Below are positions 23,007 to 25,122 of a DNA stretch of 64,000 nucleotides, in pieces. Numbering within the stretch: position 1 is the first letter of the stretch; every line of letters begins with the position of its first letter. This DNA is from Prochlorococcus sp. RS04 (GTDB lineage: Bacteria > Cyanobacteriota > Cyanobacteriia > PCC-6307 > Cyanobiaceae): positions 682,001-746,000 of the forward strand of contig NZ_CP018346.1 of assembly GCF_001989455.1 (NCBI RefSeq). Direction: 5' to 3'. Both the position numbers and the translations under genes were made by a program. A model generated the notes under the pieces. That model did not search any database. It saw only the letters and a list, made by a program, of their open reading frames with translations, and was not told the origin of the DNA.

Positions 23007-23109
23007 AATGTTCTAATTACTGTTCTTAATAAACAATATTTTAGTTATAAACCCATAATATTTAAAGTAAATTATAATTATTTTTAATGTTCTAATTACT
23101 GTTCTTAAT
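23007..23109. repeat. perfect 24-bp direct repeat, two copies (23007-23030 and 23086-23109)
   Basis: Two identical 24-nt copies, each starting AATGTTCTAATT and ending TGTTCTTAAT, are spaced 79 bp start to start in non-coding DNA just outside the tRNA-Asn element. Each copy is itself an imperfect dimer of TGTTCTAAT and TGTTCTTAAT. They could be protein-binding sites or scars of an earlier insertion. Confidence 0.85.
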
Positions 23110-23179
23110 ATTATAAAATCATATACTTGATTGCATCTTTGGCTAACCACTATTTAACAAAAAGGAGTAGAAGAAATAA

Positions 23180-23204
23180 AAAAAGTCACCTTTTTAAGGT
23201 GACT
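23180..23204 (-). terminator. Rho-independent terminator, probably the original tRNA-Asn terminator displaced by the element
   Basis: Read on the minus strand, a perfect 10-bp stem (AAGTCACCTT / AAGGTGACTT) with a 3-nt loop is followed by a run of T. It lies just beyond the outer copy of the tRNA 3'-end repeat. If the element were removed and the repeats fused, this hairpin would sit about 25-50 nt after tRNA-Asn, where a tRNA terminator is expected. Confidence 0.8.
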
Positions 23205-23227
23205 TAGATAACTTTTTAAAATTTGTA

Positions 23228-23241
23228 AACTCCCCGGGCGG
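23228..23241. repeat. outer attachment-site copy (partial tRNA-Asn 3' end)
   Basis: AACTCCCCGGGCGG, identical to the sequence at 25001-25014. Only the last 12 nt of the tRNA plus two flanking bases are duplicated; the sequence diverges immediately inside (TAGTCAGG versus GATTCGAA). This is the distal junction of the element. Confidence 0.85.
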
Positions 23242-23309
23242 TAGTCAGGGTGATGTTTCCTGAAGGTGTATGAATGAATATGACATAAGAAATTTGCGAT
23301 TTCGATATA

Positions 23310-23331
23310 TTTCCCCACCATTTCCCCACCA
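23310..23331. repeat. iterons, two copies of TTTCCCCACCA at the left end
   Basis: Two perfect 11-bp units head to tail, the second running into the ATG of the AlpA-like gene (last base A at 23331). They start 68 bp inside the left attachment repeat. The same unit, in the same orientation, occurs at the right end. Positions fit either arm-type recombination sites or operators covering the ribosome-binding region of the AlpA-like gene. Confidence 0.85.
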
Positions 23332-23528
23332 TGACAAACCCAAATAATCGTCCCTTTCTAACTATTAGAGAAGTATCAGAACTTCTTGGAATTTCAATTT
23401 CTACGATTAATAGACAAGTTAAAAAAGGAACATTTCCGCCAAAACATAAATTATCTACCAAGAGAATCGGTTTTCTTAGGTATCAAATAGATCAGTGGAT
23501 AGGAGGGGAAAGAGATAAATGGAAATAA
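23331..23528 (+). CDS. AlpA-like helix-turn-helix regulator/excisionase
   Basis: 65-residue MerR/AlpA-type DNA-binding protein. The helix-turn-helix reads FLTIREVSELLGISISTINR, followed by the AlpA wing KKGTFPPKHKLSTKRIGFLR and terminal YQIDQWI. Such proteins activate integrase genes (AlpA of CP4-57), act as excisionases, or regulate neighbouring cargo. The ATG overlaps the last base of two iterons, which leaves no usual Shine-Dalgarno sequence and suggests control at or near the start codon. It is convergent with the restriction gene. Small size and single domain are normal for the family. Confidence 0.85.
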   Translation: MTNPNNRPFLTIREVSELLGISISTINRQVKKGTFPPKHKLSTKRIGFLRYQIDQWIGGERDKWK

Positions 23529-23559
23529 AAAATTTTATAAATCTACTCTTAAATCAGAA

Positions 23560-24852
23560 TCATTCAAAAAGTATTTCCTCAGGATCTCTGTATTGAATTA
23601 CGCCTTCGTATTCTAAATCAATTTTTTTTAAATATTCTGCTACATTTTTAAAACCTTGTTCAAAAACAATTTCATTAACCACTTCAGCAAGTTTTTTGCC
23701 ATTTATTAATAAAAGAGGATACTTATCTTCAAGAATTTCAATTTGTACTTTATCTGAAAAATAAGAAGTAGTTACATATACACCCAACCATCCTCTTTTG
23801 AGTTTGGCGACAGTTCTTGCAATATGCTTGCCTCCTGTTGGACTATTTAAGGATTCACATTTTGCTTGTCCTAATACAATAACTTTTGCACTTCCAAAAC
23901 CAGTCCCAATATCCATCCTTCCTATAAAGTCTATTCCAGAATCTCCACTACCTTTTGTTATCCACCCTGCTTTATAGTCTTTTGCAGACTTCCTTATTAA
24001 AGATTCTGTTACGATAGACGCTAAATTCTCAAATCTGAGTTTTTTGTTGTCATAAAAATCATATATTTCTTTGAGCGTTTTAAATTCTTTTGAACCTTTT
24101 TCTGGTTTTTGTTGTGAAGTTGGAAGAACATTCAGTTTAAATACATTTCTTCTTAAACTATCAATACTTTTATTCCCTAATTCAATCCATTTCTTCCATG
24201 ATGAAGGTGCTTTTTTTATTGTTTCCTCTATAGATAAATTTTTATCTCTCCGAAGGTTTATCCATTCCCAGTCAAAATATTCATTTTCTGTAGTCATCTC
24301 CAATACAGCAAAATCAAAAACATAATTAACAAAATCTTTATTGGTTTTTCCGTTATGTTGAACTATTCTCTCTGCATTTGTAATTATTCCAAATCCATTA
24401 AACTCCAAAAAACCTTTTTGCTTTCCATCAATTGATTTTCTTTTAAAAAATATTATCGGGCATGCCCCTCTTCGCACATCAATATTGCTTGAATTATGTA
24501 TTTCAAATTGCTTAAGTAGTGCTTTATTGCCTGATTTTTTCTCAGGATCTCCTATGTCCTTATTATCTCCGTAATATCTAATATGACCTTTTTGAATATT
24601 ATAAAAATCTTGCCATGGAGTAACTAAAGAACCACTTTTATGCGGACTTGAAGAAGTGATTATGGCAGGTGTTCTTTCTATACTCTTATTTCGTACTTTT
24701 CCTATAGGATTAATTCCACTTTCTAACAAAACTAAATTTTCATTTGGTAAGTCCGTATAAAATGAAAAATTAGGATAACCATCAATTTCAATTTGATCTC
24801 TCACTTTATCTTTTGGATATCTAAATATTTGCCCAATTTTTAATTTATTCAT
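23560..24852 (-). CDS. AspBHI/MspJI-like modification-dependent restriction endonuclease
   Basis: Likely cleaves DNA carrying modified cytosine, as MspJI-family enzymes do. From ATG 24852 the protein is 430 residues (MNKLKIGQIFRYPKDKVRD), about MspJI size. The N-terminal two thirds should hold the base-recognition domain (PNFSFYTDLPNENLVLLESG, RGACPIIFFKR, GFGIITNAERI). The C-terminal domain is Mrr-like, with Asp308 in GDSGIDFIGR, then GQAKCES giving Gln329 and Lys331. This D-x20-QAK spacing equals the MspJI active site as I remember it. The frame is open to 24951, but the extra codons run through the iterons and look non-coding. No cognate methyltransferase is present, as expected for a type IV-like enzyme. 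Confidence 0.75.
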   Translation of the reverse strand: MNKLKIGQIFRYPKDKVRDQIEIDGYPNFSFYTDLPNENLVLLESGINPIGKVRNKSIERTPAIITSSSPHKSGSLVTPWQDFYNIQKGHIRYYGDNKDIGDPEKKSGNKALLKQFEIHNSSNIDVRRGACPIIFFKRKSIDGKQKGFLEFNGFGIITNAERIVQHNGKTNKDFVNYVFDFAVLEMTTENEYFDWEWINLRRDKNLSIEETIKKAPSSWKKWIELGNKSIDSLRRNVFKLNVLPTSQQKPEKGSKEFKTLKEIYDFYDNKKLRFENLASIVTESLIRKSAKDYKAGWITKGSGDSGIDFIGRMDIGTGFGSAKVIVLGQAKCESLNSPTGGKHIARTVAKLKRGWLGVYVTTSYFSDKVQIEILEDKYPLLLINGKKLAEVVNEIVFEQGFKNVAEYLKKIDLEYEGVIQYRDPEEILFE

Positions 24853-24902
24853 AATTTTCTCTGAACAAATATTTATATTTATTTTGCCAGATATTGAAAA
24901 TA

Positions 24903-24935
24903 ATTCCCCACCATTTCCCCACCATTTCCCCACCA
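24903..24935. repeat. iterons, three copies of TTTCCCCACCA at the right end (first copy one mismatch)
   Basis: Head-to-tail 11-bp units: ATTCCCCACCA, then two perfect TTTCCCCACCA. They end 65 bp before the tRNA-side attachment repeat and lie 50-83 bp upstream of the restriction-enzyme start codon. Orientation relative to the chromosome is the same as in the left cluster. Confidence 0.85.
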
Positions 24936-24952
24936 CAAACTTTAATATCAAT

Positions 24953-24976
24953 AAAAAAAGACCTCTATTGAAGTCT
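24953..24976 (-). terminator. Rho-independent terminator after tRNA-Asn, carried by the element
   Basis: On the minus strand AGACTTC-AATA-GAGGTCT forms a 7-bp stem (one G-T pair) with a 4-nt loop, followed by seven T. It lies 26 nt beyond the tRNA 3' end but inside the element, so it replaces the displaced original terminator. Confidence 0.8.
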
Positions 24977-25002
24977 CCTGAAAGTTTTAGTAATAGATGT
25001 AA

Positions 25003-25074
<72 letters not shown>

Positions 25075-25122
25075 ATATAAATGAATTTAGCTCTTTAAAG
25101 TACCTTATGACAAGTAAAATAT

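What the first reader, a model, noticed from the sequence alone, without database searches (positions are those of the whole stretch)
23228..25014. Minimal integrated element at tRNA-Asn with no integrase
Seen: a 14-bp perfect direct repeat of the tRNA 3' end encloses 1.76 kb holding only an AlpA-like HTH and a restriction-endonuclease-like gene. Known: tyrosine recombinases use tRNA 3' ends, and Prochlorococcus carries tycheposons at tRNAs. Inference: this is a non-autonomous satellite that depends on an integrase encoded elsewhere, carrying a compact defence cargo. If mobile, it would be one of the smallest cargo-bearing elements of its kind.
Basis: partly seen in the sequence, partly recalled or inferred. 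Interest (0 to 1): 0.86.

Follow-up and report, generated by a model that had tools for sequence, protein, structure and literature searches.

The report
Integrase-less defence element at tRNA-Asn
In this ocean cyanobacterium (Prochlorococcus) a 1.77-kb piece of DNA, carrying one small DNA-binding gene and one DNA-cutting defence gene, sits precisely inserted at a tRNA gene without an integration enzyme of its own; relatives show that it belongs to a family of such stripped-down hitchhikers that probably borrow the enzyme of larger elements with matching ends.

Summary
Observation confirmed: AACTCCCCGGGCGG at 23228-23241 and, as the tRNA-Asn 3' end, at 25001-25014. The site is empty in many relatives and the junction is exact. 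The insert holds alpA and an MspJI-type modification-dependent restriction enzyme. Relatives hold many different elements at this tRNA; an intact integrase was found in 2 of 67 occupied loci censused. One autonomous element (AG-321-E21, 10.3 kb) has the same iterons plus alpA and a lambda-Int-like integrase with a predicted arm-binding domain. The window's genome has no gene of this integrase family. The 104-bp left arm is about 94% identical across 13 ends, while outer flanks and cargo differ. The alpA of integrase-less elements forms its own branch. Best reading: a trans-mobilised, integrase-less satellite that keeps its cis sites and excisionase (CIME- or MITE-like). Mobility is inferred; one related element (L062) with an integrase stump shows that decay also occurs. 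The 'smallest' claim fails: cargo-bearing elements of 0.97-1.1 kb occupy the same site. The primary tycheposon paper was not held, so prior description cannot be excluded.

The parts
23183..23205 (-). original tRNA-Asn terminator, displaced 1.77 kb from the tRNA by the insertion
   Evidence: terminator scan, fold -12.7 kcal/mol, z -3.6; in the nine relatives whose empty site was printed a similar hairpin sits next to the tRNA
23228..23241 (+). attL core, 14-bp copy of the tRNA-Asn 3' end
   Evidence: aligned to the empty site of G037
23242..23309 (.). left arm, non-coding; the class averages 94% identity over 13 left ends in the stretch not used for selection
23310..23331 (+). two left iterons TTTCCCCACCA (proposed arm-type integrase sites); the second abuts the alpA start codon
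23331..23528 (+). alpA, 65 aa, AlpA/excisionase-type HTH
   Evidence: PF05930 5.7e-10; phrog_66 excisionase 1.1e-9
23560..24852 (-). MspJI-family modification-dependent restriction endonuclease (430 aa from ATG; open frame to 24951, 463 aa)
   Evidence: 4f0p E 2.5e-88; PADLOC mREase_II 2.7e-155; PF18062 and PF04471
24903..24935 (+). three right iterons (24903 with one mismatch, 24914, 24925)
24956..24979 (-). replacement terminator for tRNA-Asn carried by the element
   Evidence: 67 of 67 occupied loci have a hairpin with T-run next to the tRNA, 9 of 67 in control stretches
25001..25014 (+). attR core, the functional tRNA-Asn 3' end
25002..25075 (-). tRNA-Asn(gtt), target gene, restored by the element

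Best explanation
A non-autonomous integrative element (23228-25014) inserted by site-specific recombination at the 3' end of tRNA-Asn. SHOWN: exact insertion against empty sites; att core duplication; matched iterons at both ends; alpA; an MspJI-type restriction gene; no integrase; a new tRNA 3' end and terminator supplied by the element; an autonomous element with the same iterons, alpA and a tyrosine recombinase at the same tRNA in another strain. INFERRED: the iterons are arm-type sites for the helper's integrase; when a helper element with compatible arms is in the same cell, its integrase joins or separates attL and attR in trans, while the element's own AlpA acts as directionality factor (excisionase). 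The cargo pays by restricting DNA that carries modified cytosine, and needs no methylase. Integrase-less elements with this alpA type look like a persisting lineage, not just one recent decay product.
For: Empty sites: 41 of 116 censused tRNA-Asn loci by gap length, one of which (L078) carries a right-end remnant; 67 occupied, 8 undetermined. G037 aligns through the junction with the core used once. Own genome: no match to integrase alignment A1, which matches in 26 of 266 genus genomes, several only as fragments. Helper: L227/AG-321-E21, 10.26 kb at tRNA-Asn, iterons CCCCACCA on both ends (2 left, 3 right), alpA, 437-aa integrase: phrog_1 6e-25; model matches lambda integrase, Z 15.2, and its residues 16-106 the HAI7 arm-binding domain, Z 9.5, rmsd 2.1 over 82; R, K, H..R, Y invariant in the 14 rows of A2. 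Left and right arms of one element match each other: sum 919 against a maximum of 678 in 10,000 random pairings of 28 elements. Left arm 94.5% (94.0% in the unselected part) over 13 ends, outer flank 63%, cargo 57%. The iteron-pair pattern (20 fixed bases) in one genome for each of 84,980 species: 16 stretches, 11 genomes, all Prochlorococcus/Synechococcaceae; 15 of 16 stretches hold an Asn att core. RE dS between G000 and G256 0.14, four flank genes 0.31-0.58. AlpA of integrase-less elements on one side of a 100/100 branch (19 against 5).
Against: No excised circle, attP or reads seen; the attP-like pattern in viral contigs gave only two unrelated high-GC contigs. No helper in this genome. 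Helper and window left arms are 82% alike, not identical. In 5 of 28 elements the own arms match no better than random ones (L041, L144, L152, L172, L176). L062 has a degraded alpA of the integrase-less type about 370 nt from a 56-60-aa integrase C-terminal remnant, 86% identical to that of L232, so at least one such element arose by, or went through, loss of an integrase (1 of the 114 loci without an intact integrase; a weak broken match in G048 is). G256, the only other of 266 genomes with an unbroken copy of this enzyme gene, has lost the left end and the first half of alpA. dS varies along the flank anyway (0.09-0.45 between G000 and G037). Two further tyrosine recombinases exist in the genome and are not excluded as helper.
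Confidence: 0.74

Rival explanations
1. A stranded, dead remnant (CIME by decay): a once autonomous element lost its integrase and survives only for its restriction gene.
For: No helper in the genome; G256 has a left-end deletion around the same cargo; five of 28 elements have unmatched arms; L062 shows an integrase stump behind an alpA of this type.
Against: Both ends, iterons and alpA are intact in the window and no integrase stump is found in it; its alpA type occurs in many integrase-less elements and in none of the five integrase-bearing ones of the sister branch; dN/dS median 0.37 over 137 pairs; the left arm is better conserved than the coding alpA beside it.
Confidence: 0.21
2. The helper is the 389-aa tyrosine recombinase that most genomes of the genus seem to carry, or the recombinase at C1:1414312, i.e. 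a resident enzyme serves the element.
For: Both genes are in this genome; open frames of 389-404 aa are among the PF00589 hits of most of the 58 relatives searched, and the copies printed are nearly identical.
Against: The one element found with these arms that does encode a recombinase encodes the alpA-linked family instead; the second enzyme lies beside a partial tRNA-Pro-like sequence (my reading).
Confidence: 0.12
3. Strains gain the filled allele by homologous recombination of the whole locus; no site-specific step is active now.
For: One shared cargo allele is at the same locus in two strains.
Against: Different cargoes and tandem elements each bounded by an att copy; flank dS exceeds cargo dS for G256, though dS varies between genes.
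Confidence: 0.1
4. A phage satellite (PICI/PICMI-like) packaged by a cyanophage.
For: alpA is one of the genes that define PICMIs and is sufficient to trigger their excision (PMC10803314, passages).
Against: No integrase or primase found inside; iteron pair 0 hits in viral contigs, the integrase 0 hits, the element 0 hits in 50,697 phage records.
Confidence: 0.05

Closest known systems
CIME (cis-mobilizable element; as defined in PMC5704250, passages read)
   Same: Has attL and attR at a tRNA 3' end and no integration genes; such elements accrete in tandem with others.
   Different: A CIME is defined as a decay product; here alpA and matched arms are kept, and the same alpA type recurs in many integrase-less elements with different cargo.
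Tycheposons (Hackl et al. 2023; the paper itself is not held; known here only through passages of citing papers)
   Same: Prochlorococcus, tRNA sites, tyrosine recombinases, variable cargo.
   Different: The window element has no recombinase. One citing paper gives 4-200 kb and seven tRNA genes; whether tRNA-Asn is one of them I could not read.
PICMI (PMC10803314, passages read)
   Same: Small marine element with alpA; AlpA necessary and sufficient for activation there.
   Different: PICMI requires int, alpA and a primase; int and primase were not found here.
MITEs and CALINs as hitcher elements (PMC11389934, passages)
   Same: Elements with ends but no enzyme, moved in trans.
   Different: Site-specific tRNA integration; keeps its own alpA.
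MspJI family of modification-dependent endonucleases (PMC4499157, passages; 4f0p)
   Same: Nearly full-length similarity, E 2.5e-88; recognition and Mrr-type domains; the D..QxK residues I recall for MspJI align.
   Different: Specificity untested; carried on a minimal integrative element.

Membership tests
Site-specific tRNA-integrated element | Direct repeat of the tRNA 3' end bounds the insert, and the empty site has one copy | tested here: met
CIME | attL and attR kept, integration and transfer genes lost | tested here: met
   loss from an integrase-bearing ancestor not shown for the window's copy
CIME | Mobilised by an integrase from a related element | not testable with these tools
   a candidate helper with the same iterons is found; no functional test
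Tycheposon | Encodes a tyrosine recombinase | tested here: not met
   none in 23228-25014 and none of this family anywhere in G000
Tycheposon | Sits at one of the tRNA genes described for tycheposons | tested here: inconclusive
   sits at tRNA-Asn; whether that tRNA is on the published list was not readable
PICMI / PICI-like phage satellite | int, alpA and primase genes together | tested here: not met
   only alpA and the restriction gene are recognisable
PICMI / PICI-like phage satellite | Presence in phage particles | tested here: inconclusive
   no hit in viral contigs or phage records, which does not exclude it
MspJI-family restriction endonuclease (cargo) | SRA-like modified-base domain plus Mrr-type catalytic domain along the protein | tested here: met
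   the alignment shows D..QAK conserved (catalytic role recalled)
MspJI-family restriction endonuclease (cargo) | Cleaves DNA with 5-methyl- or 5-hydroxymethylcytosine | not testable with these tools
   the genome has no PF00145 C5-methylase at E 1e-3, which is compatible

The most novel reading that the evidence does not exclude
The window's element belongs to an old, separately evolving lineage of integrase-free elements whose common gene is alpA and whose arms match several autonomous integrase classes (CCCCACCA with AG-321-E21; CCCAACAT with G035 and G111). They would be obligate parasites of other elements' integrases that supply their own directionality factor, carry exchangeable cargo, often for defence, and restore the host's tRNA terminator. 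In the integrase-less CCCCACCA class the promoter-bearing leader of alpA seen in two autonomous elements is gone and the alpA start abuts the second iteron (11 of 13 left ends), so an integrase sitting on the iterons would directly silence the excisionase: a two-part switch needing no regulator.
Probability: 0.42. Interest if true: 0.78.

Novelty: new variant of a known kind. Interest (0 to 1): 0.62.

Why it matters
It offers a small test system for how streamlined ocean bacteria shuffle defence genes: one tRNA site, empty and filled alleles, one alpA, one cargo gene, and a named candidate helper with the same arm sites. If the lineage really persists without an integrase, satellites of integrases that keep only an excisionase are a stable way of life and not just debris, and small 'genomic scars' at tRNA genes would need re-reading. 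It also suggests how a tRNA can be hit repeatedly without harm, because each element brings a new 3' end and terminator.

Tried and rejected
Pfam PF00589 as the integrase search: it gave two genes in the window's genome but missed the tRNA-Asn integrase of G050 and gave no family at E 0.001 for the L227 integrase; replaced by own profiles and alignment A1. A statement I would have made, that no tRNA-Asn element has an integrase, would have been wrong and is not used.

Viral contigs: iteron pair 0 hits; attP-like pattern 2 hits, both in unrelated high-GC contigs; L227 integrase 0 hits. Phage records: 0.

The tyrosine recombinase at C1:1414312 was considered as helper: it lies beside a partial tRNA-Pro-like sequence (my reading; ARAGORN found no complete tRNA there), and the iteron pair does not occur near it.

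Phage-satellite reading rejected for lack of integrase, primase and viral hits. 'Smallest of its kind' rejected.

AlpA tree with more families needs two changes because of distant long-branch rows; the one-branch result is from the restricted set, from which I had dropped L062, L160, L056 and L075 (short or degraded ORFs), L185, and the alpA genes of the other integrase elements. L062, one of the dropped rows, is the one with an integrase stump, which lowers the lineage reading somewhat; I lowered its odds from 0.45 to 0.42 and the main reading from 0.75 to 0.74 for that reason.

Papers: the primary tycheposon paper is not held. Searches that could have shown an integrase-less Prochlorococcus element showed none in their listings; that does not prove that it is unpublished. 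One search was a listing only.

Full report
OBSERVATION. The 14-bp repeat AACTCCCCGGGCGG is at 23228-23241 and 25001-25014 and nowhere else in the window, even with two mismatches (expected 0.03). The right copy is the 3' end of the only tRNA gene, tRNA-Asn at 25002-25075 minus. Between the copies are alpA (23331-23528, PF05930) and a restriction gene on the other strand (PF18062 plus PF04471). Two further features frame the insert. First, 11-bp iterons TTTCCCCACCA, two at the left end and three at the right (one with a mismatch), all in one orientation; as a tandem pair, with up to three mismatches, they occur only here in the 1.66-Mb genome. Second, two terminators on the tRNA strand: the native one, now stranded at 23183-23205, and one supplied by the element at 24956-24979 (folds -12.7 and -11.2 kcal/mol, z -3.6 and -2.5).

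IT IS AN INSERTION. I fetched tRNA-Asn loci of relatives, chosen by match quality and completeness and not at random (of 197 matching genomes of the 200); G256 and G124 were fetched because of the restriction gene. After dropping one duplicate genome (L082), 116 loci including the window were scored by the gap to the next conserved gene and by extra att copies: 41 empty, 67 occupied, 8 not determinable. One 'empty' locus (L078) holds a right-end remnant. In G037 the window's flanks align on both sides of a single core copy, at about 90% identity on the left (printed junctions of nine relatives). A hairpin with a T-run lies within 90 nt of the tRNA in 67 of 67 occupied and 40 of 41 empty loci, against 9 of 67 in control stretches 300 nt further out, so the elements bring a replacement terminator.

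A CROWDED SITE. Occupants differ in size and content: type I restriction genes judged by sequence beginnings only (L095, L228), a DNA methylase with a second gene (L041), restriction-helicase proteins (L099, L177), a MrcB_N/NOV_C protein (L045), repeat proteins, and elements of 168-219 bp without any ORF of 75 aa (L058, L070, L083, L087). Of eight cargo proteins that I picked as possible defence genes, seven had PADLOC matches at E 0.001 or better, some of them weak; that is a chosen sample. Smaller cargo-bearing elements than the window's exist: 972 and 993 bp with alpA plus one gene, and 1090 bp with one gene.

HELPERS. Six own profiles of tyrosine recombinases found an integrase in 2 of 117 loci (L067, L185), both directly behind an alpA-type gene. 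A tblastn with 18 integrase rows on 116 loci found the same two and one 56-60-aa remnant in L062. An alignment of four such integrases (A1) found matches in 26 of 266 genus genomes, several only fragments, and none in the window's genome. Of its 30 loci, six have a tRNA-Asn att copy nearby (G180, G050, G021, G035, G111, G082; G111 seen at its left end only). In the G082 element no alpA was detected. The G021 element (10.26 kb; contig length equals AG-321-E21) has iterons TTTCCCCACCATATCCCCACCAT at the left and three CCCCACCA at the right, alpA, and a 437-aa integrase; the G035 element shows the same 2+3 layout with CCCAACAT. The G021 integrase is phrog_1 (6e-25). Its model (mean pLDDT 80.9, pTM 0.49) matches lambda integrase (Z 15.2, but rmsd 21 over 304 residues, as if the domains were placed differently), and its first domain matches the arm-binding domain of HAI7 integrase (Z 9.5, rmsd 2.1, 82 residues). 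The residues I recall as catalytic (R275, K304, H372, R375, Y410) are invariant among the 14 rows of A2; in the G180 enzyme, not in A2, the H is a Q. An arm-binding domain makes the iterons the natural arm sites; this is inference.

THE ARMS ARE THE CONSERVED PART. For 28 hand-collected elements over 600 bp with two att copies, the left arm of an element matches its own right arm far better than in random pairings: sum 919 against mean 526 and maximum 678 in 10,000 permutations. The elements are related, so the number is not a clean probability. The own arm ranked in the top three for 21 of 28; for five it was no better than random (L041, L144, L152, L172, L176). The iteron-pair pattern (20 fixed bases) in one genome for each of 84,980 species gave 16 stretches in 11 genomes, all Prochlorococcus or Synechococcaceae; 15 of the 16 contained an Asn att core and the other (L243) lies in the same host neighbourhood. 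One of the 11 genomes showed the integrase in the fetched stretches; the stretches were 8 kb or less, so an integrase further off could be missed. Across 13 left ends of this class the 104-bp arm is 94.5% identical (94.0% in the part not used for selection), the outer flank 62.7% (14 ends; in tandem arrays this is another element's end), alpA 77.9% (8 ends), cargo 56.7% (7 ends).

THE INTEGRASE-LESS LINEAGE. In a tree of 24 alpA products, the 5 from integrase-bearing elements and the 19 labelled integrase-less lie on two sides of a branch with 100/100 support. Three of the 19 (L242, L247, L253 second copy) come from truncated loci, so absence of an integrase further on is not proven for them. 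With more distant alpA families added, the groups need two changes. dN/dS over 137 alpA pairs has median 0.37; the 40 rows printed run from 0.10 to 1.27, and those near 1 involve L062 or pairs across the two groups. Against a purely old integrase-less lineage: L062 carries a degraded alpA of this type some 370 nt from an integrase stump. In two autonomous elements a consensus promoter (TTGACA, 17 bp, TATAAT) lies between iterons and alpA; in the integrase-less CCCCACCA class that leader is missing and alpA starts within about 10 nt of the second iteron in 11 of 13 ends (my reading of the sequences).

CARGO. The enzyme is related over most of its length to 4f0p (MspJI, name recalled; E 2.5e-88) and more weakly to AspBHI, and is PADLOC mREase_II at 2.7e-155. 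Such enzymes cut DNA with modified cytosine and need no protecting methylase, so one gene suffices. The genome has no C5-methylase match at E 0.001. PF18062 matches in 3 of 266 genus genomes: here, in G256 at the same tRNA (96-97% aa identity) but with the left end and the first half of alpA deleted, and broken in G124 on another contig than its tRNA-Asn. Synonymous divergence between G000 and G256 is 0.14 for this gene and 0.31-0.58 for four flanking genes, as expected for transfer; but dS between G000 and G037 ranges from 0.09 to 0.45 over the same flank genes, so local recombination could do the same.

MECHANISM. Proposed: a helper element with compatible arms enters or resides in the cell; its integrase binds the iterons and the tRNA core and recombines attL with attR in trans; AlpA of the small element favours excision, as shown for AlpA in PICMI (PMC10803314, passages) and for the AlpA-like VefA in a Vibrio island (PMC3014918, passages); the circle reintegrates at tRNA-Asn, restoring tRNA and terminator. 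How DNA leaves the cell is unknown. None of these steps was observed.

KNOWN OR NEW. By the definition in PMC5704250 (passages) it meets the anatomy of a CIME. It is not a tycheposon by the recombinase criterion, nor a PICMI. The new part is the repeated, alpA-keeping, arm-matched family. The tycheposon paper could not be read, so I rate it a new variant of a known kind.

Noticed in passing
G000:C1:357493-357921 (L038, L080): A 389-aa tyrosine recombinase; similar-sized hits recur in most of 58 relatives and the printed ones are nearly identical. Role unknown; it could be a chromosomal recombinase.
   Followed up: partly
L081:5420-6915 (G000:C1 about 1413400-1414900): A second tyrosine recombinase gene beside a partial tRNA-Pro-like sequence, with small secreted-protein-like genes around it; tycheposon-like.
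   Followed up: partly
L070 (168 bp), L058, L083, L087 (187-219 bp) at tRNA-Asn: Mini-elements without any ORF of 75 aa, bounded by att copies. L070 looks like a deletion between left and right iterons, with one iteron pair left.
   Followed up: partly
L062 (G022) at tRNA-Asn: Degraded alpA of the integrase-less type near a 56-60-aa C-terminal integrase remnant, a possible snapshot of integrase loss.
   Followed up: partly
L150 and L152 at tRNA-Asn: Elements whose left and right iterons look like different classes, as if built by recombination of two elements.
   Followed up: no
L069, L241, L244, L246, L249, L252, L253, L256: Long repetitive proteins (about 340 to 2500 aa, 'GSDGSIYI' type repeats in several) are recurrent cargo of elements with the CCCCACCA iterons.
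   Followed up: no
window 23007-23031 and 23086-23110: A perfect 25-bp direct repeat in the host flank next to the insertion; similar TGTTCT..ACTGTTCT sequence is seen in empty sites.
   Followed up: no
L067, L185, L227, L228, L230: All five fully seen autonomous tRNA-Asn elements also carry a small gene with a resolvase-like sequence start (serine recombinase by eye, not tested).
   Followed up: no
L137 (G256:C9): Same restriction gene at the same tRNA, but a deletion removed attL and the first half of alpA, locking the cargo in.
   Followed up: yes
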